Assembly (NCBI GenBank): GCA_029959195.1
Contig: CP114124.1
Coordinates: 1,054,001-1,118,000 of the forward strand
DNA length: 64,000 bases
DNA from: Dictyophora rubrovolvata
Taxonomy: Eukaryota > Basidiomycota > Agaricomycetes > Phallales > Phallaceae
Direction: 5' to 3'
Shown: one piece after another, positions 4,703 to 50,411 of the stretch
How positions within the stretch are numbered: the first letter of the stretch is position 1
How the letters are laid out: the number at the start of each line of letters is the position of its first letter
Program-made: the position numbers and the translations under genes
Notes under the pieces: generated by a model
What the model saw: only the letters and a program-made list of their open reading frames with translations
The model's database searches: none
What the model was told of the DNA's origin: nothing

Positions 4703-5421
4703 CTAGTTGTTGGATGAGGGCGGAGGAAACAGGGGAACATCAACAGAATTTTCCTCAAATTTTCGCCCCATCGCGGTGTACTGGTATGTCACGTTTGCTT
4801 TCTGGTCTTCTAAGAATTTAACGGTGGCAGAACCACTTAAGTAAGGTCCAAACGAAAAATTGATGGTATTGCTATTGCCCTTGTCGTCCACCAAATTGGA
4901 TGTAGAACGAACTCGAACTGTTCCCAAAACTGGGAAGGTGAAGTAAATATGCAGGGATTTCAATTCGGGTTGACTGGTGTCTTTTCGCGGAGCCACTGTA
5001 ATTACGAACTGGTTTATAGGTTAGTAAGAAGAAACAATGAAGGAGGACTAGAAGAAGAACATTGAGTCTATGACCGTCGTCGAGCTTGCCTGTGAGCCTT
5101 TGGGTGCTATTTGAAGAGGACAGAGCTTGTTGTTCAGGTGTAGGTTGTACGGTGTGGCCTGTTGGTTGGCCATTGGAAGAGGTGACCGGCTGAACGGCAG
5201 TCAAGAGTTCTAAAGTTTATGAAGCTAAGCGGCTGCCATGACATGTAGGAGATAATTCCCTTACTGGTAGAATCTGAAAATCTTTGACGTTAGTTGGACT
5301 GTGGGAGGGAAGGGTAGTATGTATGCTTCATCGCGATGAACATACCTAACAAGTTGGTGATTCCACTATCGGTCAAGTGGCTTAATTTTTGACGAGGAAA
5401 TATAGGTACCGCACTAGTCAT
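4703..5421 (-). CDS. T1a: small beta-rich family protein (T1 type with T3-like first exon)
   Basis: Three exons, 5346-5421, 5061-5209 and 4703-5008, total 531 nt or 176 residues. Exon 1 (MTSAVPIFPRQKLSHLTDSG) is much closer to T3 than to the other T1 genes. Exon 2 is Gln/Thr/Ser-rich and ends GKLDDGHRLN. Exon 3 is nearly identical to T1 and T1b (YFTFPVLGTVRVRS, FSFGPYLSGSATVKF, VTYQYTAMG). No signal peptide, membrane segment or known domain is visible, and the function is unknown. The frame is open throughout. A TATA box sits at 5476-5483. An alternative acceptor in the long first intron would add an exon, but that runs into a stop. Confidence 0.72.
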
Positions 5422-5475
5422 TACTGCGTTCTGTGAACAGAAACTGTGCTAACAAAAGACTTCGTAGGATCGAGC

Positions 5476-5483
5476 TTTTTATA
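5476..5483 (-). promoter_or_regulatory. TATA box of T1a
   Basis: TATAAAAA followed by GCTCGATC on the minus strand, about 55-60 nt before the T1a start. The string AAAAGCT(C/T)GATC recurs at T3-left, T3-right and T1b, suggesting shared promoter ancestry. Confidence 0.65.
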
Positions 5484-5499
5484 AACTCATAGTCGACTG

Positions 5500-6300
5500 A
5501 CTCGTGACATCATCAGTCTCAGGATTTCAATACTTCAATACAAATTCGGCGAAACAAAGGGTCTTTCAACAATTTGAAATGAGGCGGCTTATAGATTCTT
5601 GACAGAGAAGATGAATTTATCGTGCACAAATCAATTGAAAAAACTCACGGTTGTAAAGAGCCCGTCAACGGAAATGACTGAACATCGTGAATATTACAAT
5701 TTACACTGAACTGATGTTTCACCATCGTGTTCAAGCGAACTGACAGAACCACTTGGTATAAAAATAGGCAAGGAGTATATATCACGTCATTCTTTTCTAT
5801 GTACTACATATGCCGACTATTTGTTTGGGCCTCTGGCCGTTTTAGTAGCCCTACAAAAAATTACACCATTCTTATTCACATTGACGTCGAGCACACGTTT
5901 ACTTCTTCTAATTGAATACTCATTCAGTTTACGACATGAATTAAGACACATAAACGTGTCATTATGTAAAGCGTGAACAACTGAATCCTGCATAGGCTGT
6001 ACTCTTTACATAAATGTCAGGCCAGGGTCCATGAAATGGTGTGCGCATATTAGTCGCTATCATTAGAATATGGAATGCTTGCGAATCGATGGGACAGTCA
6101 ACCGTCGAATGGCGGTTCTTGGGACACGTGCCACACGTCCGAGTTGGTCGTATCATTCAAAGTTGACATGCATACAATTAGACAAAGATAGAATTTCGCT
6201 AGAAGAGTGATTACCCTTTCAATAATTCGATTTGCGGGGTTGGGTGCCACTTCCTTGAATATAAAAGCTGAAGTTGTTAGAGTACGATTAGCAGATTTTT
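5500..6300. repeat. T1a-T2a intergenic spacer, direct repeat of the T1b-T2b spacer
   Basis: This spacer aligns in the same orientation with 17095-17350 plus 18309-18830. Examples are the shared AAAGGGTC-TTCAACAATT, TTATAGATTCTTGACAGAGA and TTCTTATTCACATTGACGTC. The T1b-T2b copy is interrupted by an insert of about 0.95 kb. The spacer is a bidirectional promoter region for the divergent T1 and T2 genes. Confidence 0.8.
6260..6266 (+). promoter_or_regulatory. TATA box of T2a
   Basis: TATAAAA followed by GCTGAAG, 47 nt before the T2a start. It is conserved at T2b (18783-18789). Confidence 0.65.
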
Positions 6301-6306
6301 CACATC

Positions 6307-6975
6307 ATGAGTACAGTAGTTCAAGTACTACCATCTACACTCATGGACACTCCCCATCTAACTGACCGCGCCATTGTTGATGAAACAGGTAGGATCCATT
6401 CCCCATTCGATGAATTCACGACAGGTTGATTGTGTCATTATTAGATATTTCTAGTAAGAACACTGCACTCCACTTTACCCTGTATATTTCTAACCGGGAT
6501 GAATGCAAGCTTTCCATCATTTTGCTGGCCAAGTGAAAGAAATCACAAAGGACATCAAAAATCTGCTAGACCCTGATAATTTGGGAGTGTTTTCGTTAAC
6601 GACCAGCCTTCCTGAGGGAGCCGCCGGGTCTCTCTATGAGTATAGCGCTGGCCCATTTAGCGTACCTCGTTTTCCTTTTTCCATTAATTCTTCTCGATTA
6701 TCTAACCTTGAGTTCAGTTCAAGATACAAGATGAATCGAACGACGTGTCACTCCAAACGTTCTACGGTCCGCCACTTTTTGCCCCTATCTTAATAGATAG
6801 CTCTCGTGGCACCCTCGATAAAGGTATCTCTGCCACTCTCGGACCGTCTGATATTCTAGACGGCACGGTCAATATCACTAAGGGAGCGGCCGATAAGTAT
6901 GTCCTTCAATACGATGTCACCATCAAGATATCTGGCGGCAAGCACTACCGAGGAGAAATTTCTCTCGAAATTTAA
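6307..6975 (+). CDS. T2a: small beta-rich family protein with 9-nt micro-exon
   Basis: Exons 6307-6388, 6445-6453 (micro-exon ATATTTCTA, encoding Asp-Ile-Ser), 6510-6661 and 6718-6975 total 501 nt or 166 residues. The start gives MSTVVQVLPSTL. Exon 3 contains FAGQVKEITKDIKNLLDPDN. Exon 4 contains VSLQTFYGPPLF, LGPSDILDGTVNITKG and LQYDVTIK. No signal peptide, membrane helix or known domain is visible. Intact relatives are T2b and T2-right. The sequence closest to its exon 4 is the relic T2c beside ADE1, and the downstream flank also matches that of T2c, so the two pairs were copied together. Function unknown; the T1a gene is divergent. Confidence 0.75.
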
Positions 6976-7300
6976 GGTCAACTGCGGTGCCTTTTCTTCG
7001 ATATATAGTCGCCTGTACTGGTATATCTCGTGTTTCTTGGTTCCCTATTTGTCTTTAGACCTTTTATCTATTATCACAAACGCCGTAAGTTGTCATAGCG
7101 AGGTGCCAGGGTCAAGCCAAGGTCTATCTAAAAGTCTGAAGCCCTATTACAAAAAGTATAATCGAGGCGTCCGTCAACGTAGAAAAAAAGTTTTGAGTAG
7201 CGCACCAAATACCCAACTGTTAAGTTGATTGATTTTCTGAGACTAGTAGTCAAAATGGCCAACTTTTCCAACTCCAAGCCGTATTAAGTTTCGTTACGTA

Positions 7301-7420
7301 ATACTTCCTCCTCTTCCGCCAGCCCCTCTTCTCCAAACAAGCCTTTCTTTAAAGTTAGTATCAAAAGGAAAAGTGAGAGATATATACGATGTTCCGCCAA
7401 GTGAAGCTTTAGACAAGCTT
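7301..7420 (+). pseudogene. ADE1 5'-exon fragment (duplicated)
   Basis: This stretch matches the first coding exon of the intact ADE1 gene at 23585-23704, including [18 protein letters not shown]. The start codon has become ATA. The 5' flank (6980-7300) also matches the T2c-ADE1 interval, so promoter and first exon were duplicated together with T2. The match stops abruptly at about 7420, where UbiA-derived sequence begins. Confidence 0.85.
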
Positions 7421-7422
7421 AT

Positions 7423-8144
7423 AGGATTCCTTCAATCAGGTTATATCCCCAAAACGATCTCGACACTGCTTTTAATCATCTCGCAAATACTTTCTTTTTC
7501 ATTCCCTTTGTGCATAAGTAAAGCTTTCAAGTTCGCATATTCACTTATCAATCATCTAATTTTGTCTTTTTTGTATAACAGTCGTCTTTGGAATAAACAA
7601 CGTATATGGCTATCAGTGACGTGAATAACCAACGTCTGGGTTAGAAGGCGGGGTTCTCTTGCCAAGATATCACGACTCTGTCCGACGTGCATCATATTCT
7701 TCGACTGTATTGATTCTGCTGATATCCTCATCAACACGCAGGTATGAGAACGTCCTGACAACGTCACTGCTGTTGTTGCGTTGGATGGCAATACTCCGCA
7801 CCTCCATCTCGCCTGAAAGAAGTTCCATTCTTGGATTCGCTATCCAACGGCTCGATCATTTTCTTGGCGTGGTGCGTCGGATATAGTTATCGAGAAGGCA
7901 AATTCGAGATTACGCGCAGCAAATCTCTTATATTAGCTTTGTGTTCCTCTGGAATGCATGCTCTTGCGGCTGCCGTCGACTACCAATGGGATACTATGGA
8001 TGCCGATCAGACTAGTAGCTACCGTCGCAACCTACTGGGGTGTCAGAAAACTGCATGTTTCTTCGCTTTCCTAACCTTGTGAGTTATATCTTCATTTTCT
8101 CAAGTTTGCGCCATCTTTTTTCTCAGCGAGGTCCACTTTTGTTA
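7423..8144 (+). pseudogene. UbiA prenyltransferase fragment (duplicated, truncated at both ends)
   Basis: It matches the intact UbiA gene at 42008-43025 from GFLQSGYIPKT through its introns to the start of the last exon, in the opposite orientation. The first Asp-rich motif is no longer readable, the second is changed (DYQWDTMDADQT instead of DYQWDMDAGQT), and the frame is broken. It lacks the true N-terminus, which is replaced by the ADE1 fragment, and most of the last exon. It cannot give a working enzyme. Confidence 0.85.
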
Positions 8145-8236
8145 TGCATGTACCTGCATTCAGTCATTCTTTATATTGGGAAGCGAAAGCCTGACTTTCA
8201 ATCTGATTAGCTTTCGGGGGACCCCTTGAAGATTAA
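8145..8236 (+). pseudogene. Last-exon fragment of the ubiquitin C-terminal hydrolase gene
   Basis: The sequence from ATGCATGTACCTGCATTCAG to the stop corresponds to the final exon of the intact UCH gene (50699-51769, minus). The 3' flank continues to match, as far as the solo LTR at 8521. It marks the outer edge of the left duplication arm. The join to UbiA sequence lies in a few bases of shared sequence near 8140-8147. Confidence 0.82.
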
Positions 8237-8520
8237 ATCAACGATAGTGTACATTTATCGACTTTTTTTGTCAGCGGAGATGTATTCTGAAGAAATACTC
8301 ACCATGTAAACCTACATTCGAAATTCATACAAAGCACGAGCTTTACTTTAGTAGTCGACAAATTACGAACGCTCTTCCGAACCGTTTCCTGAATTCACAC
8401 CAGGAGCAAGACGTATTACAGTGGTATTGGGGAGTCTGGTAAACATCACTAAGGATAAAAATTGTGTCAAGAAGCACTGGAGTGAATCTCTAATCCATTG
8501 TTTGAGAACAAGAAAGACAA

Positions 8521-8850
8521 TGTAAGGGAGCGTAGCTCCCTACACATGGAGTGTTAGCGCCCGTCGGAGTATATTTAGTATCGTTGTCCACGTCGCTCGT
8601 TTGTCCTTACGGACACTCTTTTATGTCCCCATTTTTCTTTATGTCTATCTTCCTTTCTTTTCTTCCTTTCTTTATGTCCTTAGCTCGTTTATTAGTCCTC
8701 AAGTCTATTTGTATTTAATCTCTCCTTTCCTAGCATATAGATCATCGTTTATTCTCTCAGACTAGTCCTGAGACTTTCGGTCATTTTCACCCGCCAGTTT
8801 TATTATCGATTACGACGACGACTATCTATAGAAGAGATAGCCGCCTCACA
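8521..8850. mobile_element. Solo LTR (about 330 bp) of an LTR retrotransposon
   Basis: It begins TGTAAGGGAGCGTAGCTCCC and ends CCTCACA. ACAA flanks it on both sides (8517-8520 and 8851-8854). The right duplication arm has the uninterrupted site near 50440, which proves insertion. No internal coding region is present. The superfamily cannot be assigned from one LTR. It inserted after the inverted duplication. Strand is not determined. Confidence 0.78.
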
Positions 8851-9299
8851 ACAAAAACGCTTTATAAGCACCGAAGCTGGTTAATATTTAGGTTGTAATG
8901 GGTTGCAACGGTTCCAGATCAAAAGTAGTGGTCTGTTCGGGAACGACTTTGGAATACACCGTGTAAGCGTATTTAATTTGTGCCTGCGTGCCCGAAATAG
9001 TACTGATAGATGCAAAATATAATAGTGCCCTGGGATAACGCTGGCCGGTTTCGGCAGATGCCCGACCGGCCCCGTAGTAACAATATCTTGCCCGTCAGAC
9101 CCTGTCCGACGCTGACCGAGAATGAGATAAGAATAACTCATATTAAGCAAAGACGAACTTATTTCGGGCTAAAAGCGGCTCATATTAGGTAATTCACTAA
9201 CTGGACCTACAGGAATGCTGCCCCGTCTGAAGTTTTGCTGCAGCGGATTCAGAGAAGCAAATTCAAAGATGGAAGATTCAAAAGATGTGTTTTAACATA

Positions 9300-10541: not shown

Positions 10542-11144
10542 TGTGAGGGATTTGTTTTAGATTTAGAATAGGCTTAGTTCCTAATAAAATATAATGGAGT
10601 TTTGTTTAGGGATTGTTCAGCAACTAAAAGTCCTGTTATTGAAGGTGAGACGCTTGAAGGAATATTTGAACTTAAGAATTAAGTTCAAATTAGTAGAGAT
10701 AGATAGGGACTTATTACTAAGTCCTTGAGAATAGAAAAAGATAAGAGGAAAAAAGACCAATTTGATTGGTAAGCACTTTAGTGCACAACAGTAGTTACAA
10801 GATAGATAGATTACAAGAGAAATGAGCCCCTATTTATACACCTTGAGCAAGTACAAATAGCTCCAAACATTAGTAAGAGAAACATCATGTGAAAGATAAG
10901 AAATTACTTAAAAAGGAAGTGAATGAATAATAGTGGATCAGGGAAAATTATAGTGAGACAGGGAAGTGGAGAGAGATGATAAGAAAATAAAGGGGTTCCT
11001 GGAACTAAGTCATCTGACTGTTCCTGAAAGATAAGGTACATTACAAATAAAGGATTATTAAAGCAAGCAGGAACTAAAAAAAGAATAAAGAAAATACTTG
11101 TTTTTTTTGGGTAGATAAGGGAGGAAATCATGAAATACATGACA
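10542..11144. mobile_element. Solo LTR (about 600 bp) of an LTR retrotransposon
   Basis: It starts TGTGAGGGATTTG and ends TACATGACA, with an exact 5-bp target duplication CAGTG (10537-10541 and 11145-11149). It lies inside exon 3 of T3-left, where the intact twin reads straight through the same site. A TATA-like ATTTATACACC is near 10832. No internal region is present. The exact duplication suggests a fairly recent insertion followed by LTR-LTR recombination. Strand is not determined. Confidence 0.85.
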
Positions 11145-11775
11145 CAGTGCCTATAAGATCAGACCCGAACACATAGTTGACACTGTTCAATTGACCATTC
11201 ACTTGTTCAACTAGAAATGTCCCATTGCTGTTGCTGAAGTAGACCTGCAGTTCCTTCAAAGCTGAGCCAGATGAACCGAATTTATCCGGTGTTTTTGTGT
11301 ATATAAACTATCTGTGAGGTTAGCTGGAAAAAAAAGGTAATGGAAAGTTGATATCAGCTTGATACCTGAATGTTATCCCCAGTTCCGTATCTACCTATGA
11401 CAGCTTGAGTCTTGTCTCCTGAGAATTGTGCATCGGGGTTCACTCGGATAGTATAGACGATATGGTTTTGAGAAATTTCTTTGGAAACCTGGGATAGAAG
11501 GCCTGAAAAGTTAATTCTGAATATTCAGCTCGAAAATGCACGAAATATCCATCCTTACTTGTGGAGTCTAGTGCATTGTGCTGTTGAGTAGGTGGTTATG
11601 GGGTAATGTGAACATACCGAGCAGGTTAGTAATTCCACTATCAGTCCGGAGCGACAATCGCTGACGGGCGAATATGGGTAAGGCGCTGGTCATGGCTGAG
11701 TAGTTGATACTTGAGCTTGAGTAGTAGTACCAGATGGGAAACACTTGGTGTGCGGCAACCAGTCTAAGATCAAGC

Positions 11776-11782
11776 TTTTATA
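11776..11782 (-). promoter_or_regulatory. TATA box of T3-left
   Basis: TATAAAA followed by GCTTGATC on the minus strand, about 83 nt before the old start codon. It is retained although the gene is broken. Confidence 0.55.
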
Positions 11783-13110: not shown

Positions 13111-13116
13111 GATTCC

Positions 13117-13184: not shown

Positions 13185-13844
13185 ATGAGCACAGCAGTCG
13201 AAGTATTCCCGGTTACCCTTTCGCGCGGGATCCCTTATCAAGAGTATCGTTCCATTACCAATCCAATAGGTAAGGCTTAACACCTTATCACTCAGGACGT
13301 TCTGATGCTGTATCCAATATAGATATTGCCAGTAAGGAATTGTTGGTCTCTTAAGGCAGAGATACCTAATTAAAAGCTTATTCAAGATGTCCACTACCAT
13401 GCTAGTGACATCAAAGACATCACGAGCCAAGTCACCGACCTAAAGGACCCTGATAATCTGAAAGTGTTTCAGTTGGCCACCACTGTCACTGGCAACCCCA
13501 ATGCTGCGGATATTCAACTCTTTCACCATGCCATAGGTCCACTGGAGATAACTCCTGTTATTTGTTTAGTTGATATTCTAATGAAACATAATCCAGATAA
13601 AATTGAGCTATGATGGCGCTGACACGATTGCACTTCAAGTGTTCCTGAATATCCCAATCATCCCCTCCATTCAGGTGCTTAATACTTCGGGTTCATTGTC
13701 ATAAGGTGTTCAAGGCGATTTTGGTTACCCAGGGATCCTTTCCGGAATAGTTGGCATTGAAAGAAGGGGCGGAAAGACTACCCTTACATATTCAGCTATG
13801 GTCGTTGGGAAAACGTTTTCCGGAGGCATTCCTCTTCCATTCTG
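13185..13844 (+). pseudogene. T4-left: decayed copy of the T4 family gene
   Basis: Exon 1 (13185-13269, MSTAVEVFPVTLSRG), the 9-nt micro-exon at 13323-13331 (ATATTGCCA, Asp-Ile-Ala) and exon 3 from 13387 match T4-right. Where T4-right has a GT donor after CCACTGGAG, this copy has AT. In the last exon, Gln of LSQGIEG has become a TAA stop. The C-terminal ILSGIVGIERRGGKTTLTYS and KTFSGGIPLPF are still readable. The T5 remnant follows at 14610. Confidence 0.8.
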
Positions 13845-14609
13845 AAGTTATCCTCCCCTTTGAGTCTGCTCCTCATTTTCAGAGTCTAAACTCCTACTTT
13901 CTTGTCCTCTGTTTCTTTTGTTAGTTTGCAATTATACATTGCGACACATTGTTCACAAACGCTAGTGATTGTCAAATTACTCTGTCGCAAAATTTCGAAA
14001 CAACTTGAAGCAACCTGTTTAGATTGAATAGACTGATCGACAAAAAGAATTTGCCATACAGAGTCTGTCCAAGATTCAGAACTTACATGCCTGATCATGA
14101 CAGTCATGATTATTATACTGTCAGGTAATTTGGAAAACATGATGATGTAGGAGCACCTAAGAATACACAAGGAACTCGAGTTATGAGCTCAAGAATAAAA
14201 ATTAGTGCTTTGATAGAGGTGTATTAGCCAGTTTAGTTGTTAAAAGTAATCGGAACATTTTAGGCCCCAAAGTTGAACGTTGAACATTCAACATTCCAAC
14301 ACTTATAATATATTGGTTATGAAGAAGACTGAGGTTGCAGGTTATCTTCACCTGATCCCCCCAATCACAACATTCCGTTTAAATTTCTTTATAACTAATC
14401 GTCAATAACTGAATATAAAACTGAATTGAAGCTGAATTATGTTAAAATAACCTGGTACTGCCAGGAATGAACTGACGTACACCATTCTTTGTACAAAACC
14501 GGGAGTTTTGTGTTCATGTTATGCAATCTATATCATATAAACCCGGCTGCAAGTTGTTATTCGCCCCAGTCAGTTTTACCCCAAGCATACTCGTTCATTA
14601 CGTTTCAAA

Positions 14610-16242: not shown

Positions 16243-16912
16243 CTAGCCGCTGAATGGGGACAACGGAAGGGGTGACAGGAAAACGTCAACAGAATTTTCG
16301 TTGGCTTTTTGCCCCATCGCAGTGTACTGGTATGTCACGTTTGCTTTCTGGTCTTTTGAGAATTTAATGGCAGCAGAACCACTTAAGTAAGGTCCAAACG
16401 AAAAATTGATGGTATTGCTATTGCCCTTGTCGTCCACCAAATTGGATGTAGAACGAACTCGAACTGTTCCTAAAACTGGGAAGGTGAAGTAAATATGCAG
16501 GGATTTCAATTCGGATTGACTGATGCCTTTTCGTGGAATGCTCGTAATTATGAACTGATCAAGCTTCGAATCAGTGAAAACAAGAAATTTTAAAAAAAAA
16601 TTACATTGAGCCTGTGACCATCATCAAACCTGCCGATCAGAGCCTGAGGGTCGTTGGCATTCTTGGAGGTTGTCCTGGGATCAATGGTGCCCCTGTACAG
16701 AAATTCTAGAACGGCTGCCAAAATTCAACCAACTTGTACGTATAGGTAATATTTTTCCTTACATGCGACATCTAAAGATCTTTGCATTAGCGGGACTCAG
16801 GGAAGCCATGCTTCTTTATCATGGTGGTAAACATACCTACTGCATTGGTGACTCCACAATCAGTCTCAGTAGTCAGCTTGCTGAGGGGAAATGACGGTGC
16901 TTGAGTACTCAT
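16243..16912 (-). CDS. T1b: small beta-rich family protein
   Basis: Exons 16837-16912, 16605-16714 and 16243-16554 total 498 nt or 165 residues. The start gives MSTQAPSFPLSKLTTETDCG. Exon 2 carries an in-frame deletion of about 20 codons relative to T1-right, running straight from TTSKN to ANDPQALIGRFDDGH. Exon 3 (YFTFPVLGTVRVRS, FSFGPYLSGSAAIKF) is highly conserved. There is no signal peptide or known domain. The TATA position reads TTTAAAAGCTTGATC, so the promoter may be weaker than that of T1-right. The frame is open, but expression is uncertain. Confidence 0.7.
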
Positions 16913-18835: not shown

Positions 18836-19504
18836 ATGAGTACAGTAGTTCAAGTACTACCATCTTCGCTCGTAGGCGTTCCCTATCGAACTGATCGCGC
18901 CATTGTTGGTGCAACAGGTAGGATTCATTCTCCATTCAATCAATTCACGACGGGTTGACTGTGCCATTAGATATTTCTAGTAAGGACACACTCCATTTTA
19001 CCCGTAAATTTCTAACCGGGATGACCACAAGCTCTCTATTATAACGCTGGTCAAGTGAAAAATATCACGAAGAACGTCAAATATCTGATAGACCCTGATA
19101 ATCTGGGAGTATTTGAGTTGGCAGCTAGCCTACCTAAGAAAGTTGGAAAAGGAACCCTCTATGAGTATGGGGTCGGCCCACTGACTGTACTTTGCTTTTC
19201 TTCTTTTGGAAAAAAAACCTGATGTTGATTATTTCAGTTTAAATTACAACTCATTGAGAACGACCATCTTTCACTCCAAACGTTCTTCAGTCCTCCACTT
19301 TTTCCTGCTATCTTAATGGATAGCTCTTATAGCACCCTTAATAGAGGTATCTCCACCACTATTGGGCCTGCTGATATTCTTGACGGCACGGTCATAATCA
19401 CCAAGGGAGTGGACCACAAACCCCACCTTAAATACGATATCACCTTCACAAATTCTAAAAAGAGATACAGAGGCAATATCATTCTCGACTTCAAGTATAA
19501 CTGA
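18836..19504 (+). CDS. T2b: small beta-rich family protein with 9-nt micro-exon
   Basis: Exons 18836-18917, 18971-18979 (micro-exon ATATTTCTA), 19032-19186 and 19238-19504 total 513 nt or 170 residues, with an open frame. Features include MSTVVQVLPSSLVGVPY, AGQVKNITKNVKYL, LSLQTFFSPPLFPAILMDSS and IGPADILDGTVIITKG. It is the left-arm counterpart of T2-right (43493-44158). Without the micro-exon, the exon 1 to exon 3 join breaks the frame, which supports the model. No signal peptide, membrane segment or known domain; function unknown. Confidence 0.75.
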
Positions 19505-22149: not shown

Positions 22150-22826
22150 AATGTTGTTTATATCTAGGAACGAAGATGAAGCCCGACGAGTTCACGGTTA
22201 AGTGTTTCCCTCGCGGAGATGCTGACTGGGAGTTCGAATATCCCGAAGATCGTCTACTTCCACTTAAGGGCGTCATCGCCGACGATTTGATGCGCGCCCC
22301 CGACATGTAGGATTCAGACGGCGAACCGTGCTTGTTGGTCTCCAAGAGGGGAAATGCCACTGGCACCACCCTCGGCCGCGCGAATGACATCTTCTCCGTC
22401 GTTCGCGATTACTTTAGTGACATGTCTATCAACCAAATCTCAATGGAGTGTGGGATAATTAACTACGATAGCAAGTCGGACGTCTTTTCGGAACCTGGTG
22501 ATTCGGGCTCAATTATCGCCGACATCTGTGGTCGTATCGGTGGCATGCTTAGCGGCAGTTCTGGTAAGACCAAGACCTCCGACATGACCTATGCCACACC
22601 ATTCTGGTGGCTCCTCAAGCGTATCCAGGCTAACGAGTTCCCCAATGCCCACCTCGGTGTCGTCACCTAGGCATCTCGACATCAACGAGGATTGCTGTTT
22701 AGGTTCGTCTTTATTTTCCGTCTCGTCTTCTCGTACTTACAACTAACGAACCTTGACGTCTAGAGTCGTCTGCCTCGATTTGGATGGCGATATTGATGAC
22801 TTTGGCCTCCTAGGTCTAAACAGGGA
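22150..22826 (+). pseudogene. Fragment of a trypsin-fold-like GDSGS-domain gene
   Basis: Translation gives FTVKCFPRGDADWEFEYPED, an internal stop, then CLLVSKRGNATGTTLGRAND, EPGDSGSIIADICGRIGGML and DMTYATPFWWLLKRI. GDSGS followed by a Gly-rich strand and TYATP resembles the active-site serine loop of S1-type peptidases. I recall similar uncharacterised genes repeated in mushroom genomes, which is recollection, not a search. The fragment ends in a foreign join with T2c near 22827. Confidence 0.6.
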
Positions 22827-23310
22827 TGAGCACAAGCTCTCTATTATAATGCTAGCGAAGTGAAAGAAAACACCAAGGATGTCATAAATCTGCTAGACCC
22901 TGATTGTTTTCGTTAACGACCAGCCTTCCTGAGAGAGTCGGGTTTCTCTGAGTATACATAGCACCAGTGGCCCACTTAGTGTACCTCATTTTCTTTTTCC
23001 TTTAGTTTTTCTTCAATTATCTGATTTTGAGTTCAGTTCAAGATACAAGACAAGTCAAACGACATTTCACTTCAAACCTTCTACAGTCCTCCACTTCTTG
23101 CCCCCATCCCAGTAGACAGCCTCAATGGCACCCTCGATAAAGGTATCTCTGCCACTCTCGGAACGTCTGATATTCTAGACGGCACGGTCAATCTCAACTA
23201 AGAGAGCGGCCGATAAACGTGTCCCTCAATACGATGTCACCGTCAAAATTGGCGACAAGCACTACCAAGGAGAAATTACTCTCTAATCTCTCTAATTTTA
23301 GAGCCAACTG
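22827..23310 (+). pseudogene. T2c: remnant of a T2 family gene beside ADE1
   Basis: It covers exons 3 and 4 of a T2 gene, with several frame breaks. The stretch DILDGTVN and its DNA are almost identical to T2a, closer than to T2b or T2-right. The first exon and micro-exon are gone, cut at the join with the GDSGS fragment. Its 3' flank to ADE1 matches 6980-7300. Confidence 0.8.
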
Positions 23311-23584
23311 CAGTGTCCTTTTCTTCGCGTTGTCATACTAGCGAAGTAGATTCATCTAAAAGTCTGAAATTCCCTATTACAAAAAGTTTAATTGAGGTCT
23401 CCCAAGTTAGCGTTTTGAGTTTTTTCTTCGAATAGCGCATTAGATATTGACTAAATATCAACTTCAAGTTGATTCATTTTCTCAACTGGTAGGGCTTGAC
23501 TTTCGCCAAAAATACCAGTCCTTAAGCTTCACCGAAAAAAAAAAACGGCCTTTGACTTCAGAATGTACCAGTACCGTTTACGTA

Positions 23585-42007: not shown

Positions 42008-43025
42008 TCATGTCGTGTACGTTGAGTGGCTGTGGAGAGCTCGGAGAACTCGTATTTTTGAAAAAAACCAGAGGAATACCATCAAAATAGTCCAACAAAC
42101 GAGGACTCGAAATAAGTAGTGGACCCATTGAGGGTTTAGACAAGACGTAGCCAAAACCATAATTCCAAGCTGCAGATAGCGCTTCAATATTCCATTTCCT
42201 TCACGTTCAAAGTACCATGCAAGTATGCTAAAGTGGGCCTCGCTGAGAAAAAGATGGCACAAAATTAGGAAAATAAAGGTATAACTCACAAGGTTAGGAA
42301 AGCGAAGAAACATGCAGTTTTCGGGCCCCAATAGGTTGCGACGGTAGTCTGACCGGCATCCATATCCCATTGATAGTCAACGGCAGCCGCAAGAGCATGC
42401 ATTCCAGAGGAACACAAAGCTAATATAAGAGATTTGCTGCGTGTAATCTCGGATTTGCCTTCTCGATAACTATATCCGACGCACCACGCCAAGAAAATGA
42501 TCGAGCCGTTGGATAGCGAATCCAAGAATGGAACTTCTTTCAGGCGAAGTGGAGGTGCGGAGTATTGCCATCCAACGCACAACAGCAGTGATGTTGCCAG
42601 GGCATTCTTATATCTGCGTGTTAGTGAGGAAACTAGCAGAATCAATACAGTCGAAAAATATGATGCACGTCGGACAGAGTCGTGATATCTTGGCGAGAGA
42701 ACCCCGCCTTCTAGCCCAGACGTTATTTTTCTTGGGTTATTCACGTCACTCTGATAGTCATATACATCGTTTATTCCAAAGACAACTGTTATACAAAAAA
42801 GACGAAATTAGATTATTGACAAGTGAATATGCGAACCTTGAAAAATTTACTTATGCATAAAGGGAATGAAAAAGAAAGTATTTGCGAGATGATTAAGAGC
42901 GTTGTCAAGATCGTTTTGGGGATATAACCCGATTGAAGGAATCCCATTCCGAATAGGATAGGGCCAAAAATCCAGCCAGCAGGCCGACTTGCATATATCA
43001 AAATACCAGCAGAAGGTGGTATCAT
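42008..43025 (-). CDS. UbiA family prenyltransferase
   Basis: Exon 1 begins MIPPSAGILIYASRPAGWIF and passes GFLQSGYIPKT to CI, spliced to IVFGINDVYDYQSDVNNPRK, the first Asp-rich motif (NDxxDxxxD). The second motif is VDYQWDMDAGQT. The last exon, after LTF-EAH, ends LRALHSHSTYTT. Hydrophobic helices alternate throughout, as in this intramembrane family, which transfers isoprenoid chains to aromatic or other acceptors. The substrate cannot be inferred. The phenol hydroxylase 3 kb away could suggest aromatic metabolism, but unrelated genes lie between. An upstream exon before 43025 is not excluded. A truncated copy is at 7423-8144. Confidence 0.88.
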
Positions 43026-43492
43026 CGCTCATCCGAGGGAGTCGATGGAAACCGAGCATTACATAATCGATCAATAAGCGCCTCGTCATAGCTTGACGAG
43101 GCCTTCAGCTTCAGTTCTCCTAAGTAGCAGGTGTGATTATCATTATTTTTTTCGCAAACGACTTACAATAACCAGATACACGACGTCCCGTGCGATAATT
43201 TCATTGACCGCTCTGTCAGACTTTCTTCGAGGTGAGCCGGAAATTGCGGTCAAAACTGTAGCTTATGTACTTGGCATTGCAAAGGGTTTTTTCAGAAATT
43301 CAAGCATTTGAACCTCAAATAACTCGAAGGTAGATCATTCATAACACACGGTGCATAGAAGCGTGATAGAGATTCAGACAAAACATCAAGATCTAATAAA
43401 TGAGAAGGACCAAGAAGCACAAAATTGGCTACAGAATAACTTCTCCACGTTTCGCATTTCTAAATGCCCAAGAAAAGGCACGGGGATCAAAT
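43026..43492. other. Spacer between UbiA and T2-right
   Basis: No gene seen. From about 43430 the sequence begins to match the T2b 3' flank, which sets the inner edge of the right arm. Confidence 0.55.
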
Positions 43493-44158
43493 TCAGTTAA
43501 ATTCGAGAGTGATATCGCCTTTGTATCTCTTGTTTCCGAAAATTTTGAGGGTGGTATCATATTGAAGGTGGAGTTTGCTGTCGCTTCCTTTAGCGACCTT
43601 GACCGTGCCGTCAATAATATCAACAGGCCCAACAGTGGCAGTGATACCTTTATCACTGGTACTATAGGAGCTATCCATTAAGATGGTAGCAAAAAGTGGG
43701 GGGCTGAAGAACGTCTGGAGTGAAAGACGGCCGTTCTTGGTGAGCTGCAATTTAAACTGAAATAATCAACATCGGGTTATTTTCCCAAAAGAGGAAAAGC
43801 AAAGTACAGTCAGTGGGCCGGCTCCATACTCATGGAGGATTCCTTCTCCAACTTTCTTAGATAGGCTAGTTGCCAACTTAAATACTCCCAGTCCATCGGG
43901 GTCTAGCAGATCTTTGACGTCATTCGTGATATTTTTCACTTGACCAGCGTTATAATAAAGGGCTTGTGATCATGCCGGTTAGAGATTGACGGGTAAAATG
44001 GAGTGTGTTCTTACTAGAAATATCTAATGACACAGTCAACCTGTCGTGAATTCATTGAATGGAGAATGGATCCTACCTGTTGCACCAACAATGGCGCGAT
44101 CAGTTAGATAGGGAACGCTTACGAGCGTAGATGGCAGTACTTGAACTACTGTACTCAT
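43493..44158 (-). CDS. T2-right: small beta-rich family protein with 9-nt micro-exon
   Basis: The start at 44158 gives MSTVVQVLPSTLVSVPYLTD. The micro-exon ATATTTCTA lies near 44020, between introns that match those of T2b. Exon 3 gives YYNAGQVKNITNDVKDLLDP. The last exon gives RLSLQTFFSPPLFATILMDS and VGPVDIIDGTVKVAKG. The open frame predicts about 170 residues. A TATA-like TATAAGCTG is upstream near 44220. No signal peptide or known domain. It sits divergent from T1-right across 0.83 kb. Confidence 0.75.
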
Positions 44159-44925
44159 GATATGAATGAGTTTGGAGGAGTAAAAAGTTTGTTGGTGTCA
44201 GCCATGTACTCTCCAACAGCTTATATGCGAACCCAAATCAAATCCAGCCTTAATTAAAGGGGAACTTTACCATCTTTTTTTTTGCTGAATTCAATTATTG
44301 CCCAATGACGTGCAGAACGACAAATAGAGTGTCAACTGGCTGAACTGAATGATGAATCAGGCTGTGAGAAATATGAATACCTGGCGATATATGTGATTGC
44401 TGCACCGGCGAGCTCCTACGAAACGGCTTGATCAGCTGAAACTGTAAAGTCCCGTTTATTGGAGAAAATCTAGCTGCCGGGGAATTAGTAGCGCATGCTT
44501 CTTTTCTGGCGCCGTTTCTTATAGATTTTCTACGAGTAGCGGCTGGCTTAATCAATTCAGCGTGGGACCAATTGATGCGGGTCTTCGAGTGAACTTGAGT
44601 TCTTTTGGTACGACGTCTTCGTATTAGATAGATGACAACTAATTGCCAGACTCGTGGATCTTTGTTGTAGGTTTATATTCAGCCCGGCCTTTGAGTGTAC
44701 AAAACCCGCCAGATGAGCATGGCTGAGGGGTAGCTGGCATTTCTTTGTTTATGCAGCAACCAGGGATGTTTCAATCGAGAATTCGTTGGCTTTTCTGTGA
44801 AAAAATTCTTGAGTAATCTTTGAATTCTTTGAGGCTTAACTTTGCTTCACCTTGCGTCCACTCAGAGTGAAGAAGGATACCGGACCGAAGTCAAAACGAA
44901 TATAGTCGGGTGTTGACCATAGGTT

Positions 44926-44932
44926 TATAAAA
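44926..44932 (+). promoter_or_regulatory. TATA box of T1-right
   Basis: TATAAAAGCTTGGTC, 66 nt before the start. It is the intact form of the box that reads TTTAAAAGCTTGATC at T1b. Confidence 0.65.
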
Positions 44933-44991
44933 GCTTGGTCTGACTGGAGTACTTCATCAAGCGAACTTTTCTTCAATCCTGCTTATTGACC

Positions 44992-45725
44992 ATGAGTACC
45001 CAAGCACCTTCATTTCCCCTCAGCAAGCTGACTACTGAGACTGATCGTGGAGTCACCAATGCAGTAGGTATGTTCACCACCGTGATAAAGAAACATGGCT
45101 TCCAGTCCCGTTAACGCAAAGATCTTTAGATTCCGTATGTAAGGAAAAATATTACATACCTATACATACAAGCTGGTTAAATTTTGGCAGACGTTCTAGA
45201 ATTTTTGTACAGGAACACCGTTGACCGCGTGATGACCTCCAAAAATCGCGTTTGCTACGCCTTGCGTGCCGGACCTGAGGAGCGGCAATTTTTGCCCTCC
45301 GAGAATGCCAATGACCCTCAGGCTCTGATCGGCAGGCTTGACGATGGTCACAGGATGAATGTAATTGCCTTAAATTCTTTTTCTCGTCTTCGCTGATTTG
45401 AAGTTTTGATCAGTTCGTAATCACGAGCGTTCCGCGAAAAGGCATCAGTCAATCCGAATTGAAATCCCTGCATGCTTACTTCACCTTCCCAGTTTTGGGA
45501 ACAGTTCGAGTTCGTTCTGCATCCAATTTGGTGGACGACAACGGCAATAGCAATACCATCAATTTTTCGTTTGGACCTCACTTAAGTGGTTCTGCCACCG
45601 TTAAATTCTCAGAAGACCAGAAAGCAAACGTGACATACCAGTACACCGCGATGGGGAAACAAATTGACGAAAATTCTGTTGATGTTTCCCTGTCAACCCT
45701 TCCTTTGCCCCCATTCAACAACTAG
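44992..45725 (+). CDS. T1-right: small beta-rich family protein
   Basis: Exons 44992-45067, 45191-45360 and 45414-45725 total 558 nt or 185 residues, the longest T1 copy. Exon 1 is MSTQAPSFPLSKLTTETDRG. Exon 2 is DVLEFLYRNTVDRVMTSKN and onward to GRLDDGHRMN. Exon 3 is KSLHAYFTFPVLGTVRVRS, FSFGPHLSGSATVKF and VTYQYTAMG. All frames are open. The exon 1 length (76 nt, phase 1) is the same in T3. No signal peptide, membrane segment or known domain. Function unknown. Confidence 0.75.
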
Positions 45726-46786
45726 GATGTTCTGCTCTTTTTTTCACTTTCTTGATTTTTTCTCCTAAATTTCCAAATCCCAGTGCCATCGGAAAACAAA
45801 GGGGAGAAAATAGATACTATGTTGTGCCTACTCCAAACTTCTTGATATGATTTATGTTGCGTTTTGTGTTTAGATCACAGCTATCGTTTTAAGTCCTTTC
45901 TCTTGATAATTAAGAAAGCTGAGACCATTTCAAAATGGAGAACACGAAATTCCAGATAACAATGTCACTGATGGTTGCGATACTCTCAGTGAGCCAACGC
46001 AACAGAACCTCGGGCAATCGATCAGCCAATAAGTCAGATATATTAACTTAGGCAAGCCAATTAACCATTGCGTCTCGAGAGTGGTGCTAACCTCATATCC
46101 AGTTGTTGAAAGCATCTTAATTTTCAACCATAAAAGTTCTGCTTTCTGTTCTAAGTAAAGTTTTTGAAAAAAAAAACGAACTCAGTTGACCCGCAGAGCC
46201 CATCTGAGTCACATCTGCATACAATGAAACGTCAATAGATATCTACAAAAACATAAAAACATACCCACCGTAAGTTTCGCCCTCGCACAAACTCGCATGC
46301 CAGGTTCTGTGGCGGGCGAGGCCCTCGTGGTTCGGATGTGATTGGTGGTGGGGAAGGCTGAGGTTCCAACGCGTTGTGTCATGGTGAAAGCGGGTGTCGA
46401 TGGTGGTGGCGATAGAAAATTCCATTACGTTACAGATTATAGACTCAATAAAATAAATGTGACGTCAACCTGGCCAAAATTACAGTATGCAGATTGACAG
46501 CAAACTTAGCAAAGAGCAGTGTCGTACAGGACTGGCAGACCGCCCTTAATTTGTCACCGGCTTCACTTGTCACATTCGTGTCACATCTTTGCACGATGCT
46601 CTTAGTTCGTGTCCTTACTATAGCTTCGTATGCTCTTTTCTAAATGCAAGTACTTAGTACTTAGCACTTCAAATGAGTTTTACATTTACAAAAGATGATC
46701 GATCATTGATAATAGTTCCAAGGAAACCATCAATGATATTGTTGAAGTCAGCGTAGGGATTTGTACAGCCGCGTTTGTTTAGTTCA
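45726..46786. other. Spacer between T1-right and T5-right
   Basis: Convergent 3' ends. The part 45770-45990 matches the 3' flanks of T1a and T1b in inverse orientation. No gene supported. A 60-codon minus frame at 46243-46425 shows no conservation with the left arm. Confidence 0.5.
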
Positions 46787-47315
46787 TCAAGAACACCAGT
46801 AAATTACAAGCCAGTAGCTGGCTATACCATCATCCCCCCGTTTCTTGCAATCGTAGCAAGTGATACCAGTAGGAACGATTCTGTTCCAAATATATCCATA
46901 CGTCCCGGTGATGACATCCTTTGTAAGTTGTTTGCCATGAACGTTGATGCCTATGTTTGCACTGACGGCCACAGCAGGTGCAGTGTTTAGCATCCTTGGG
47001 AACTTTGATGAAACTATCTCCGAGAACGGGAATCTCTAGCAACTCCTCGATTAATTTCGTGTCCTTTTCGGGAGTCTTAAGGATGATCATGCCGTCACTT
47101 TTTTGAAAGAAGTGCTTTGTTGCTTCTGTGCTTCTCTTCGCTGACAACTAAAGGCATAGAATTAGAAAGAGGTTCGCCAAATTTCACGGTCTTCGAGTTC
47201 ACGTACTGCTGCCTTTGACGAGATCAGGAATATTATAGGCAAATAAACAGTTATTCAAGCTATAATTCTATGGTTTCTGCAACTCATTATGTAAACTTAC
47301 ATCGTTAGTAGACAT
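46787..47315 (-). pseudogene. T5-right: frame-disrupted copy of the T5 gene
   Basis: The start at 47315 gives MSTND, then an intron, then NIPDLVKGS. The conserved SDGMIILKTPEKDTKLIEEL, FIKVPKDAKHCTCCGRQ and GTYGYIWNRIVPTGITCYDC are all present but in different frames. Relative to T5-left there is a 2-nt gap before the TKHFFQKSDGM region and a deletion of about 17 nt after GRQ. A micro-intron rescue was considered and not found. TATATAAACCC lies at 47384-47391 (minus). Both arms thus carry damaged T5 copies, with different lesions. Confidence 0.62.
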
Positions 47316-48315
47316 TCTGAAACGGAATGAGCGAGTATGCTTGAAGCAAAACTGACTGGGGCGAATAACAACTTGCGGTCGGGTTTATATATGGTGCATG
47401 TTGCATGACCACGAACACAAAAAACTCTCCGTTTCATCCTAAGAATGGCATACGCTAGTTCGTCTTTGGCGGTAGGCTTGTCTTCCCCGTGTATATGACG
47501 CTACATCACGCCGAAGCCTTCAAAAACAAATTAATGAAGGAAGCGTCTCATGTTATCCTTCAGCCAGACGAGGCTTTCCCAGTTTCCAAAAAATGGCTTT
47601 CTATTGTCAATGAATGTACAATAAACCATTCTTCTGCTCCATTTGAATTTGCTACTGACTCTAGGTAGGCTTGGTCGACCGGGCTGTAAAATGTAACAGA
47701 TGGCTTCAAAAAAGGTTTTTCTAGTCCTTCTCCCTCAATTGAACGCCATTGATTGAATCAGACGGTTGTATTGAAACAATAGACGGGAATTTGCTTCACG
47801 GAAGCTACGCTCGTTTTACCCTATTTGCTGACATCGAGGCCGTCGATGTCTTATAGTAGAAGGAGTGTATCCGGGCGGTGATTCTCGATGCCATGTTTAA
47901 GAGATTCAGTTGTTCAAGAGAAAGACTGGGAATAGTTAATGCGTCTCTATTAAAGCAGTAGTTCTAATTCTTGAGCCCATGACTTTAGTTCCGTTGTACA
48001 ATGTATTCTTAGATGTTCCCACATCATATTATTGCAAAAATCTCAAGTGATCATGAAGGCCATGATTAGGCATGTTCAGACTCTGTACGGCAAATTCTTT
48101 TTATAGATCGGTTAATCCTGATCGGTTTATTCAATCTCAGGAACAGGTTGTTTCCAACTTTTGCGATAGAGTAATTTGACAATCACTGGCGAAATTGAAC
48201 AATGCGTCGCAATGTATAATTGCAAACTAACAAAAGAAACAGAGGACAAGAAAAGACAAGAAAGTAGGAGTTTAGACTCTGAAAATGAGGAGCAGACTCG
48301 AAGGGGAGGATAACT
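47316..48315. other. Spacer between T5-right and T4-right
   Basis: No gene supported. It contains the same-orientation relic of 12025-12140 at about 47725-47800. The part 47990-48260 matches the T4-left 3' flank (13890-14170) in inverse orientation, including TAATTTGAC and GTATAATTGCAAACTAAC. Confidence 0.5.
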
Positions 48316-48975
48316 TCAGAATGGAAGAGGAATGCCTCCGGAAAACGTTTTCCCGGCGACCGTAGCTGAATATGTAAGGGTAGTCTTTCCGCCCGTTCTT
48401 TTAATGCCAACTGTTCCGGAAAGGATCCCCGGGTAACCAAGAGTGCCTTCGATACCTTGTGACAACGAACCAGAAATATTAAGCACCTGAATGGAGGGGA
48501 TGATTGGGATGTTCAGGAACACTTGAAGTGCAATCGTGTCAGCGCCATCATAGCTCGATTTTATCTGGATTATGTTTCGTTAGAATATCAACTAAAAAAA
48601 TAACAGGAGTTACCTCCAGTGGACCTATGGCATGGTGAAAGAGTTGAATATCCGCAGCATTGGGGTTGCCAGTGACAGTGGTGGCCAACTGAAACACTTT
48701 CAGATTATCGGGGTCCTTTAGGTCGGTAACTTGGCTCGTGATGTCTTTGATGTCACTAGCATGGTAGTAGACATCTTGAATAAGCTTTTAATTAGGTATC
48801 TCTGCCTTAAGAGACCAACAATTCCTTACTAGCAATATCTATGTTGGATACAGCGTCAGAACGTCCTGTGTGATAGGTGTTAAGCCTTACCTATTGGGTT
48901 GCTAATGGCACGATACTCTTGAAAAGGGATTCGCTTTGAAAGGGTAACTGGGAATACTTCGACTGCCGTGCTCAT
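48316..48975 (-). CDS. T4-right: small beta-rich family protein with 9-nt micro-exon
   Basis: The start at 48975 gives MSTAVEVFPVTLSKRIPFQE. Micro-exon ATATTGCTA (Asp-Ile-Ala) lies near 48830. Exon 3 gives VYYHASDIKDITSQVTDLKD and LATTVTGNPNAADIQLFHHA. The last exon gives IALQVFLNIPIIPSIQVLN, LGYPGILSGTVGIK and LTYSATVAGKTFSGG. The frame is open, with about 168 residues. TATA box at 49036-49042. It has the same architecture as T2. It is the functional-looking twin of the decayed T4-left. Function unknown. Confidence 0.75.
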
Positions 48976-49633
48976 GACGTGAAAGGGGAAGACACTGGTC
49001 TGTTAGTGTTGAGTTGCCTATTCACGTCGAAAATGTTTTATAGGAATCAGAGCCTGTACATTGTGATATTCTAATCGTTGAAAAGTACGACAGGTGTGCC
49101 CAATGGCTAAATGAATGGAGAACACAATGTATTCGCGAAGAAGGTCCCTTGGCCGCTGTGGGACTCCGATCGATGTGAACATGATGAAGGAAATCAAGGC
49201 CGTTACCTGGCTGAATCGAACTGCCGGGTTTTGGGTTAGATCAGTGCATATGACGGAACTTTGGGAATTCGAATTGCTGGCGTGTGCTTCTTTTCTGGCG
49301 CTATCACGCACTTTTTAAAAGGAAAATCCAATGATGGCAGCTGGCTTTATCAATGTAGTGTGGACTCTGCGAGGCATTGAAAGAGAATTGAATGGATAGT
49401 GCCAGATGTTGGCAGCTTGTGTTGTCGGCATTCCCCGGTTCTCAGTCAAATCACTGATGATGAGGCTGCTTCGAAATTGAATTCGGGTTTACTGTTTTCT
49501 GGCTTTTTGTGTGAGTTGACTTCGAGTTCTTTGCTGTGAAGCCAAGTTTGTTTCATCGTTTGTGCATCCGTCTCAAGGCAAAAAATGAATATGTGTAACA
49601 TTGCGATCACGGATAAGGGAGTTGCTATAAATT

Positions 49634-49640
49634 TATAAAA
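49634..49640 (+). promoter_or_regulatory. TATA box of T3-right
   Basis: TATAAAAGCTCGATC, 93 nt before the start. It shares AAAAGCT(C/T)GATC with T1a, T1b and T3-left. Confidence 0.62.
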
Positions 49641-49726
49641 GCTCGATCTAGTTACAATGTTCGATTGCACACCAAGTGTTCCCCATCTGGTACCACTCAA
49701 GCTCAAGTATCAAGTACTACTCAGCC

Positions 49727-50411
49727 ATGACCAGCTCCTTACCCATATTCGCCCGTCAGCGATTGTCGCTCCGGACTGATAGTGGAATTACTAACCTGCT
49801 CGGTATGTTCACATTACCTTACCCAACCGTGACCGCCTACTCAACAGCACAATGCACTAGACTCCACAAGTAAGGATGGATATTTCGTGCATTTTCGAGC
49901 TGAATATTCAGAATTAACCTTTCAGACCTTCTATCCCAAGTTAATTCCAAAGAAATTTCTCAAAACCATATCGCCTATACTATCCGAGTGAACCCCGATG
50001 CACAGTTATCAGGAGAACAGGCTCAAGCCCTCATAGGTAGATACGGAACTGAGGATCAGGTTCAGGTATCAAGCTGATATCGACTTTTCATTACCTTTTT
50101 TCCCCGGCTAACCTCCCAAATAGTTTGTATACACAAAAACACCGGATACTTTCGGTTCATCTGGCTCAGCTTTGGAGAAACTGCACGTCTACTTCGGCAA
50201 CAGCAATGGGACATTTCCAATTGAAGAAGCGAGTAATCCATTGAACGTCAACTATATGTTCGGGCCCGATCTTAAGGGCACTGTATCTATTAGGGCTATT
50301 TCGGACACGAAGGCACAAATTAAATACGCTTACACGGTGTATTCCAAAGCCGTTCCGGAACAGACCACTATTTTTAATCTGGAACCGTTGAAGCCTATTA
50401 CAACTTATTAA
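49727..50411 (+). CDS. T3-right: small beta-rich family protein
   Basis: Exons 49727-49802, 49926-50065 and 50124-50411 total 504 nt or 167 residues. Exon 1 is MTSSLPIFARQRLSLRTDSG. Exon 2 is DLLSQVNSKEISQNHIAYTI and ends GRYGTEDQVQ. Exon 3 is FVYTKTPDTFGSSGSALEKL, YMFGPDLKGTVSIRA and IKYAYTVYSK. The frame is open. The alignment FGPDLKGTVSI (T3) / FGPHLSGSATV (T1) / LGPSDILDGTVNI (T2) / LGYPGILSGTVGI (T4) links the family. Its left-arm twin is destroyed by insertions. No signal peptide or known domain. Confidence 0.75.

What the first reader, a model, noticed from the sequence alone, without database searches (positions are those of the whole stretch)
4703..50411. A linked superfamily of small beta-rich genes (T1, T2, T3, T4) with one shared architecture
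Four sequence types that look different at first align at both ends. N-terminus: MSTQAPSFPLSKL, MTSSLPIFARQRL, MSTVVQVLPSTL and MSTAVEVFPVTL are each followed by a phase-1 intron placed just before a D/E codon. C-terminus: FGPHLSGSATV, FGPDLKGTVSI, LGPSDILDGTVNI and LGYPGILSGTVGI are each followed by a Y-x-x-T strand. There are seven open-frame genes and several relics in one window. None has a signal peptide or a known domain, so this looks like an undescribed, locally amplifying family.
Basis: partly seen in the sequence, partly recalled or inferred. Interest (0 to 1): 0.85.

Follow-up and report, generated by a model that had tools for sequence, protein, structure and literature searches.

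The report
Paired small mushroom genes, function unknown
Four kinds of small fungal genes that look unalike appear to be one family, built on the same four-exon plan with a tiny nine-base exon and sitting in back-to-back pairs that were copied as a block; nothing in the libraries searched says what they do.

Summary
T1, T2, T3 and T4 are one gene family. Eight open copies share a predicted four-exon plan: exon 1, a 9-nt microexon, exon 3 and exon 4, with intron phases 1, 1, 0. Three more loci are broken. A profile of T3/T4 exon 4 finds the exon-4 frames of all four open T1/T2 copies ahead of every unrelated segment among 3,170 six-frame segments. AlphaFold2 models of both types show seven exon-4 strands in the same order.

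T1/T2 form subfamily A and T3/T4 subfamily B. The genes stand as head-to-head A-B pairs: T1 with T3, and T2 with T4. A block of about 8.6 kb carrying both pairs was copied in tandem and inverted. So the amplification is segmental, not gene by gene.

No significant match was found in Pfam, NCBIfam, PHROGs or PDB sequences, and no significant fold match. Fungal proteomes could not be searched, so "undescribed" is untested beyond those libraries.

Best guess: co-expressed cytosolic beta-meander proteins that work as A+B partners, perhaps ligand-binding defence proteins. That function is weakly supported.

The parts
4703..5421 (-). T1a, open, 179 aa; exons 5346-5421, 5265-5273, 5061-5209, 4703-5008; mosaic: exons 1-2 T2-like, exon 4 T1-like
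   Evidence: intron-3 donor GTTCTT is weak
6307..6975 (+). T3a, open, 166 aa; exons 6307-6388, 6445-6453, 6510-6661, 6718-6975; head-to-head with T1a (885-bp spacer)
7294..8139 (+). piece of the 5' part of the SAICAR synthetase gene (7294-7420, 92.9% to 23578-23701) joined to a UbiA-type piece (7421-8139, 89.9% to 42947-42230): right end of copy a
8144..9014 (-). 3' flank and 3' end of exon 4 of T2b (8851-9014), the flank holding a ~330-bp TG..CA insert at about 8521-8850
11141..11693 (-). T2b, 5' part (exons 1-3 and start of exon 4), cut off by a ~2.1-kb insert at about 9015-11140; broken
13185..13845 (+). T4b, broken: in-frame stop in exon 4 and intron-3 donor AT instead of GT
16243..16912 (-). 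T1b, open, 168 aa; exons 16837-16912, 16763-16771, 16605-16714, 16243-16554
18836..19504 (+). T3b, open, 170 aa; exons 18836-18917, 18971-18979, 19032-19186, 19238-19504; head-to-head with T1b (1,923-bp spacer)
22819..23327 (+). T3d, relic fragments of exons 3-4, just before the fuller SAICAR synthetase gene
43493..44158 (-). T3c, open, 169 aa; exons 44077-44158, 44015-44023, 43808-43962, 43493-43756; AlphaFold2 model m959d09b976e8
44992..45725 (+). T1c, open, 188 aa; exons 44992-45067, 45130-45138, 45191-45360, 45414-45725; exon 4 modelled as mc626fb1ec0e6; head-to-head with T3c (833-bp spacer)
48316..48975 (-). T4c, open, 167 aa; exons 48891-48975, 48830-48838, 48614-48774, 48316-48564
49727..50411 (+). 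T2c, open, 170 aa; exons 49727-49802, 49861-49869, 49926-50065, 50124-50411; head-to-head with T4c (751-bp spacer)
42230..50790 (-). block copy c, inverted relative to copies a (4447-8139) and b (8144-19567): order T2-T4-T5-T1-T3-UbiA

Best explanation
Shown, with predicted gene models: T1-T4 are one gene family in two subfamilies, A (T1, T2) and B (T3, T4), with one shared gene plan (four exons, a 9-nt microexon, intron phases 1, 1, 0). A and B genes stand head to head in two kinds of pair, T1-T3 and T2-T4. A block of about 8.6 kb carrying both pairs was copied in tandem and inverted, and some copies have decayed.

Inferred history (about 0.8): an ancestral gene duplicated into a divergent A/B pair, the pair duplicated once, and then the whole block duplicated.

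Inferred product (about 0.6): a small cytosolic all-beta protein, mainly an antiparallel meander, with seven strands in exon 4 and no signal peptide by eye.

Inferred function (about 0.25): each divergent pair is expressed together from its shared spacer, and its A and B products work together as a heteromer that binds a ligand. It would be stored in the cytosol as a defence protein, in the manner of other cytosolic fruiting-body defence proteins.

The confidence below is for the whole chain including function; homology and architecture alone would be about 0.9.
For: Gene plan shared by 9 of 9 models, 8 of them open, with introns of 48-72 nt. Microexon motif in 9 of 9 genes against 0.2-1.9% of shuffles per gene. 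The B exon-4 profile ranks the four open A exon-4 frames (E 8.4e-5, 3.5e-4, 1.2e-3, 0.06) directly after the B pieces and before any unrelated segment out of 3,170. hhalign of A against B: P 2.5e-4 over 150 columns, though probability only 43%. T1-against-B z up to 6.3 for exon 4 and 6.1 for exon 1. Seven exon-4 strands map one to one, by hand, between the B model and the A model. T1c-T2c dN 0.69 and T3c-T4c dN 0.63 are alike, as one duplication of a pair predicts. Block copies at 74-90% DNA identity. Between types dN is well below dS (1.6-3.9). For the function: divergent pairing is reported for fungal aegerolysin/MACPF partners (PMC9505663, passages), and cytosolic fruiting-body lectins and biotin-binding proteins are toxic to fungivores and model animals (PMC6238071, introduction).
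Against: hhalign probability is only 43%. Exon 3 shows no A-B similarity, and T2 against T3/T4 is weak. Neither exon-1 profile finds the other subfamily's exon 1 significantly (A profile: best E 3.6; B profile: none listed up to E 5), the A exon-4 profile finds B only at E 0.24-0.9 and misses T3a, and the B exon-4 profile does not list the two T2b pieces. Among recent copies dN/dS is 0.39-0.70 over the full coding sequence and up to 2.0 for exon 4 alone (T1a-T1c, few changes), so recent constraint is loose. Exon gaps between copies are no more often multiples of three (8 of 28) than intron gaps (7 of 24), although gap placement on DNA is ambiguous. No expression data exist. No fold match reaches E 1e-3. 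Both structure alignments mixed A and B rows, so the agreement of folds is not fully independent. Nothing tests ligand binding, defence or heteromers.
Confidence: 0.35

Rival explanations
1. An ordinary lineage-specific orphan gene family caught in a segmental duplication: the products act singly, the pairing is only a trace of an old inverted duplication, and the role is housekeeping-like or dispensable.
For: Recent copies evolve with dN/dS 0.39-0.70, exon and intron divergence are similar between copies b and c, 3 of 11 loci are broken, and the neighbouring T5 is disrupted in both copies.
Against: All five pair copies (three T1-T3, two T2-T4, the genes of T2b-T4b being broken) keep the divergent order. 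Between types dN is well below dS. Eight of 11 loci stay open; a rough neutral simulation of six of the eight open genes, with assumed branch lengths, gives 0.03-0.59 per gene for staying stop-free.
Confidence: 0.4
2. A and B are a two-part membrane-active pair that works like aegerolysin/MACPF partners.
For: Head-to-head arrangement and small, predicted all-beta products without an evident signal peptide; divergent aegerolysin/MACPF pairs in fungi (passages of PMC9505663).
Against: No Pfam match to a pore-former, no significant fold match, and A and B are paralogues of similar size, unlike a small binder with a large MACPF partner.
Confidence: 0.1
3. A small ligand-binding beta-barrel family of lipocalin/calycin type.
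For: Meander of strands; nitrophorins and a designed beta-barrel are among the 50 listed weak Foldseek hits for both models, and nitrobindin and other lipocalin-type chains for the B model.
Against: Every such hit has E of 0.13 or worse with TM-scores of at most 0.47; no Pfam lipocalin match.
Confidence: 0.25
4. The four types are unrelated and only look alike at their ends.
For: Exon 3 does not align between A and B, and identity of the A proteins to T4c is 20-22%; the exon-1 profiles do not cross between A and B.
Against: Shared microexon and all three intron phases, exon-4 profile hits across subfamilies, same strand order. Within A, T1a joins T2-like and T1-like parts.
Confidence: 0.04

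Closest known systems
Fungal aegerolysin/MACPF bicomponent gene pairs (plyA/plyB and relatives)
   Same: Head-to-head gene pairs in fungi with a beta-sandwich component (PMC9505663, passages)
   Different: No sequence match; A and B here are paralogues of similar size, and the paired partner is not a large MACPF-like gene
Cytosolic fruiting-body defence proteins (lectins, biotin-binding tamavidins)
   Same: Made in the cytoplasm (PMC6238071, introduction), as the lack of an evident signal peptide suggests here; small size and beta-rich folds are recalled knowledge
   Different: No Pfam or PDB sequence match; expression site unknown
Lipocalin/calycin-type barrels (nitrophorins, nitrobindin)
   Same: Weak Foldseek similarity; nitrophorins listed for both models, nitrobindin for the B model
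   Different: No significant E-value, no sequence match
Microexons of Phanerochaete chrysosporium P450 genes
   Same: Exons of 2-10 codons and frequent introns of 45-55 bp in a basidiomycete (PMC1184071, passages)
   Different: Unrelated proteins; here one 9-nt exon is kept across a whole small family

Membership tests
T1-T4 as one family | same intron positions and phases, including the 9-nt exon 2 | tested here: met
   9 of 9 predicted models; shuffles; no RNA evidence
T1-T4 as one family | sequence similarity of subfamilies A and B beyond chance | tested here: met
   met for exon 4 by profile and for T1 exons 1 and 4 by shuffles; not for exon 3; weak for T2; exon-1 profiles do not cross
T1-T4 as one family | same predicted fold | tested here: inconclusive
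   seven exon-4 strands correspond, but both alignments mixed A and B, and coordinates were not superposed
Aegerolysins | match to a Pfam aegerolysin profile | tested here: not met
   no such family reported at E up to 10 in 8 of 8 proteins, (that the library holds the profile is recalled)
Aegerolysin/MACPF pair | a large MACPF-like partner gene head to head | tested here: not met
   the partner is a paralogue of about the same length
Lipocalin/calycin | closed beta-barrel with significant structural match | tested here: not met
   no match with E <= 1e-3; best calycin-type hit E 0.15 (nitrobindin, B model) and 0.25 (nitrophorin, A model)
Beta-trefoil mushroom protease inhibitors (mycocypins, cocaprins) | sequence match to Pfam or PDB members | tested here: not met
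   none reported at E up to 10 in Pfam or PDB; one search listed two unrelated chains at E 0.5
Cytosolic fruiting-body defence proteins | high expression in fruiting bodies and activity against fungivores | not testable with these tools
   no RNA or assay data

The most novel reading that the evidence does not exclude
A previously unnamed family of fungal proteins in which two paralogous subfamilies, always encoded head to head and both carrying a conserved 9-nt microexon, make an obligate A+B heteromeric beta-barrel with a new defence or recognition role, kept diverse by block duplication and exchange of exons between paralogues (as in T1a).
Probability: 0.15. Interest if true: 0.75.

Novelty: new variant of a known kind. 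Interest (0 to 1): 0.42.

Why it matters
Small orphan families without known domains are common in mushroom genomes (recalled) and are hard to join up, because each type looks unrelated. Here one locus shows how four such types descend from one gene, with the link preserved in intron phases and a 9-nt exon that gene finders easily miss. It also gives a concrete, testable unit for function: a divergent pair of paralogues. If A and B act together, the locus would be a fresh case of a paired-protein system in fungi.

Tried and rejected
Dead ends. Pfam, NCBIfam, PHROGs and PDB searches gave nothing significant; the one Pfam line (satellite virus coat, E 0.11, T2c only), the two PDB lines (E 0.5) and three PHROG lines (best E 0.026, matched by two members) were taken as chance. 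Viral contigs with the B and A profiles gave 9 and 69 pattern hits and no relative. Prokaryotic contigs with the A profile gave 49 pattern hits and no relative. Plasmids with T3c gave none. No whole genome is held for the window. Foldseek against PDB (both models) and against BFVD (B model only) had no match at E 1e-3. Literature searches by topic (microexons, bicomponent pairs, mycocypins, cytosolic lectins, orphan families, calycins) showed no title or abstract on such a family; the lists were partly capped (for example 12 of 343), and a family without a name cannot be searched by name.

Considered and set aside. T2a as a separate relic: it is the 3' end of T2b beyond an insert. Multiples of three among exon gaps as a test of coding constraint: uninformative (8 of 28 against 7 of 24). 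Positive selection on T1a-T1c exon 4 (ratio 2.0): it rests on 3.5 synonymous and 22.5 other changes and I did not test it. The column 'frame kept if skipped' was a wrong formula and is not used; skipping 9 nt keeps the frame by arithmetic.
Full report
What is there. Short introns fit, and the neighbours include genes for SAICAR synthetase, an anoctamin, a WD40 protein, an RNase H2 subunit and thymidylate kinase. Eight are open from start to stop: T1a, T1b, T1c, T2c, T3a, T3b, T3c and T4c, with products of 166-188 residues. T4b has a stop in exon 4 and a lost intron-3 donor. T2b and T3d are broken too. That makes 11 loci, 8 of them open. All splice sites are predictions; no RNA evidence was available.

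Gene plan. All nine models have four exons. Exon 1 ends in phase 1, after the first base of a D codon. Exon 2 is only 9 nt long, written AG|9 nt|GTAAG in every model. Exon 3 follows in phase 1 and exon 4 in phase 0. Introns are 48-72 nt. The AG-N9-GTRAG arrangement occurs once between exons 1 and 3 in 9 of 9 genes but in only 0.2-1.9% of dinucleotide shuffles of the same stretches. Microexons of 2-10 codons and introns of 45-55 bp are known from a basidiomycete (PMC1184071, passages), while a 2024 paper states that functional microexons had not been described in filamentous fungi before (PMC11121469, abstract and passages). So the device itself is not new. Its conservation across types is the evidence for common descent.

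Homology of the two groups. T1 and T2 form subfamily A and T3 and T4 subfamily B; within each, full-length z-scores are 17-58. Between A and B, T1 exon 4 reaches z 6.3 and exon 1 z 6.1 (both against T4c), exon 3 shows nothing, and T2 is weak. hhalign gives P 2.5e-4 with a probability of only 43%. The cleanest test was a profile of the four B exon-4 peptides run against 3,170 six-frame segments of the window. After the B pieces come the four open A exon-4 frames (E 8.4e-5, 3.5e-4, 1.2e-3, 0.06), and the first unrelated segment is at E 1.7; the two pieces of T2b are not listed. The reverse search is weaker: T4c comes first after the A pieces at E 0.24, T3c and T3b at 0.74 and 0.9 are mixed with an unrelated segment at 0.67, and T3a is not listed. 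The exon-1 profiles do not cross between A and B.

Fold. A B-type model (T3c, with its introns read as filler because the tool takes contiguous DNA only) has low mean confidence (pLDDT 55) but 68-87 per ten-residue block over nearly all of exon 4. An A-type model of T1c exon 4 alone has mean pLDDT 79, and its five models range from 75 to 79. By hand, using alignment A5, the seven strands of exon 4 correspond one to one. Both input alignments mixed A and B rows, so this agreement is supportive rather than independent. Foldseek found no match with E of 1e-3 or better in the PDB (both models) or among viral models (B only). Among the 50 weak PDB hits listed for each model, nitrophorins and a designed beta-barrel occur in both.

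Genomic arrangement. The genes stand head to head as A-B pairs: T1a-T3a (885 bp apart), T1b-T3b (1,923), T1c-T3c (833), T2b-T4b (about 1.5 kb) and T2c-T4c (751); spacers follow. Self-comparison shows a block T2-T4-T5-T1-T3-UbiA of about 8.6 kb. Copy c (42230-50790) holds all of it, inverted. Copy b (8144-19567) lacks the UbiA end. Copy a (4447-8139) keeps T1, T3 and the UbiA piece, with a bit of the SAICAR synthetase gene between them. The UbiA end of copy a meets the T2 flank of copy b, so a and b look like a tandem pair. T3d lies just before the fuller SAICAR synthetase gene at 23.4 kb, which explains the piece of that gene beside T3a. T2b is cut by about 2.1 kb of foreign DNA, and its 3' flank holds a ~330-bp TG..CA insert that looks like a solo LTR.

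History and selection. T1c-T2c and T3c-T4c have similar dN (0.69 and 0.63), as expected if one A-B pair was duplicated once. T1a is a mosaic: exons 1-2 are 22 of 29 identical to T2c against 12 and 13 of 29 to T1b and T1c, while exon 4 is 82 of 101 identical to each of T1b and T1c against 29 of 88 to T2c. Exon 3 does not follow T2 (11 of 46, against 14 of 31 and 17 of 47), and the stretch upstream is closest to T1b. Between types dN is well below dS, which is 1.6-3.9. Between block copies dN/dS is 0.39-0.70 over full coding sequences, so recent constraint is modest. A rough simulation of six of the eight open genes, with branch lengths that I assumed, gives 0.03-0.59 for a gene to stay stop-free under neutrality; together the open copies suggest use, but the numbers are approximate. 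Exon gaps show no excess of multiples of three.

Function. This is the weak part. Predicted: small all-beta products. Shown: A-B pairing. By eye there is no signal peptide; no predictor was run. Inferred: co-expression and joint action of A and B. In fungi, divergent gene pairs encode two-part toxins of the aegerolysin/MACPF kind (PMC9505663, passages), but these proteins match neither component. Cytoplasmic lectins and biotin-binding proteins of fruiting bodies are held to act against predators (PMC6238071, abstract and introduction). A stored, cytosolic, ligand-binding pair of that general kind is my best guess at about 0.25. An ordinary orphan family without partner action is about as likely or more so.

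Novelty. No significant match in the profile libraries or PDB sequences, and no viral, prokaryotic or plasmid relative was found with the queries tried. No paper on such a family showed up in the lists I saw. Fungal proteomes were not available, so I claim only that the family is absent from these libraries. As a kind, it is a lineage-restricted family spread by segmental duplication. The paired-paralogue layout with a fixed microexon is what sets it apart.

Noticed in passing
14611-15152 (+) and 46770-47318 (-): T5, another small gene in the block between the two pairs, without a Pfam match for its pieces; copy b has an in-frame stop and copy c lacks 17 nt and 2 nt relative to b.
   Followed up: partly
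about 9015-11140: A ~2.1-kb insert splits exon 4 of T2b; six bases on either side of the break both align to the same six bases of T2c with one mismatch each, like a target-site duplication. It holds a 167-bp tandem duplication (9321-9650) and inverted repeats (9889-10212).
   Followed up: partly
about 8521-8850: A ~330-bp insert with TG..CA ends in the T2b 3' flank, resembling a solo LTR; no other copy in the window.
   Followed up: partly
4703-5421: T1a joins T2-like exons 1-2 to a T1-like exon 4, suggesting exchange between paralogues.
   Followed up: yes
exon 2 of every model: The 9-nt exon could be skipped without losing the frame, so two protein forms per gene are possible.
   Followed up: no
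upstream of T1c, T2b, T2c, T3a: TATAAAAGCT occurs 47-93 nt upstream of the start in 4 of 10 copies checked, spread over T1, T2 and T3; near variants stand before T1a, T1b and T3b. A possible shared core promoter.
   Followed up: partly
31063-31158 (-): A tRNA by Rfam (52 bits) that ARAGORN with bacterial settings did not report; at 96 nt it may hold an intron.
   Followed up: no
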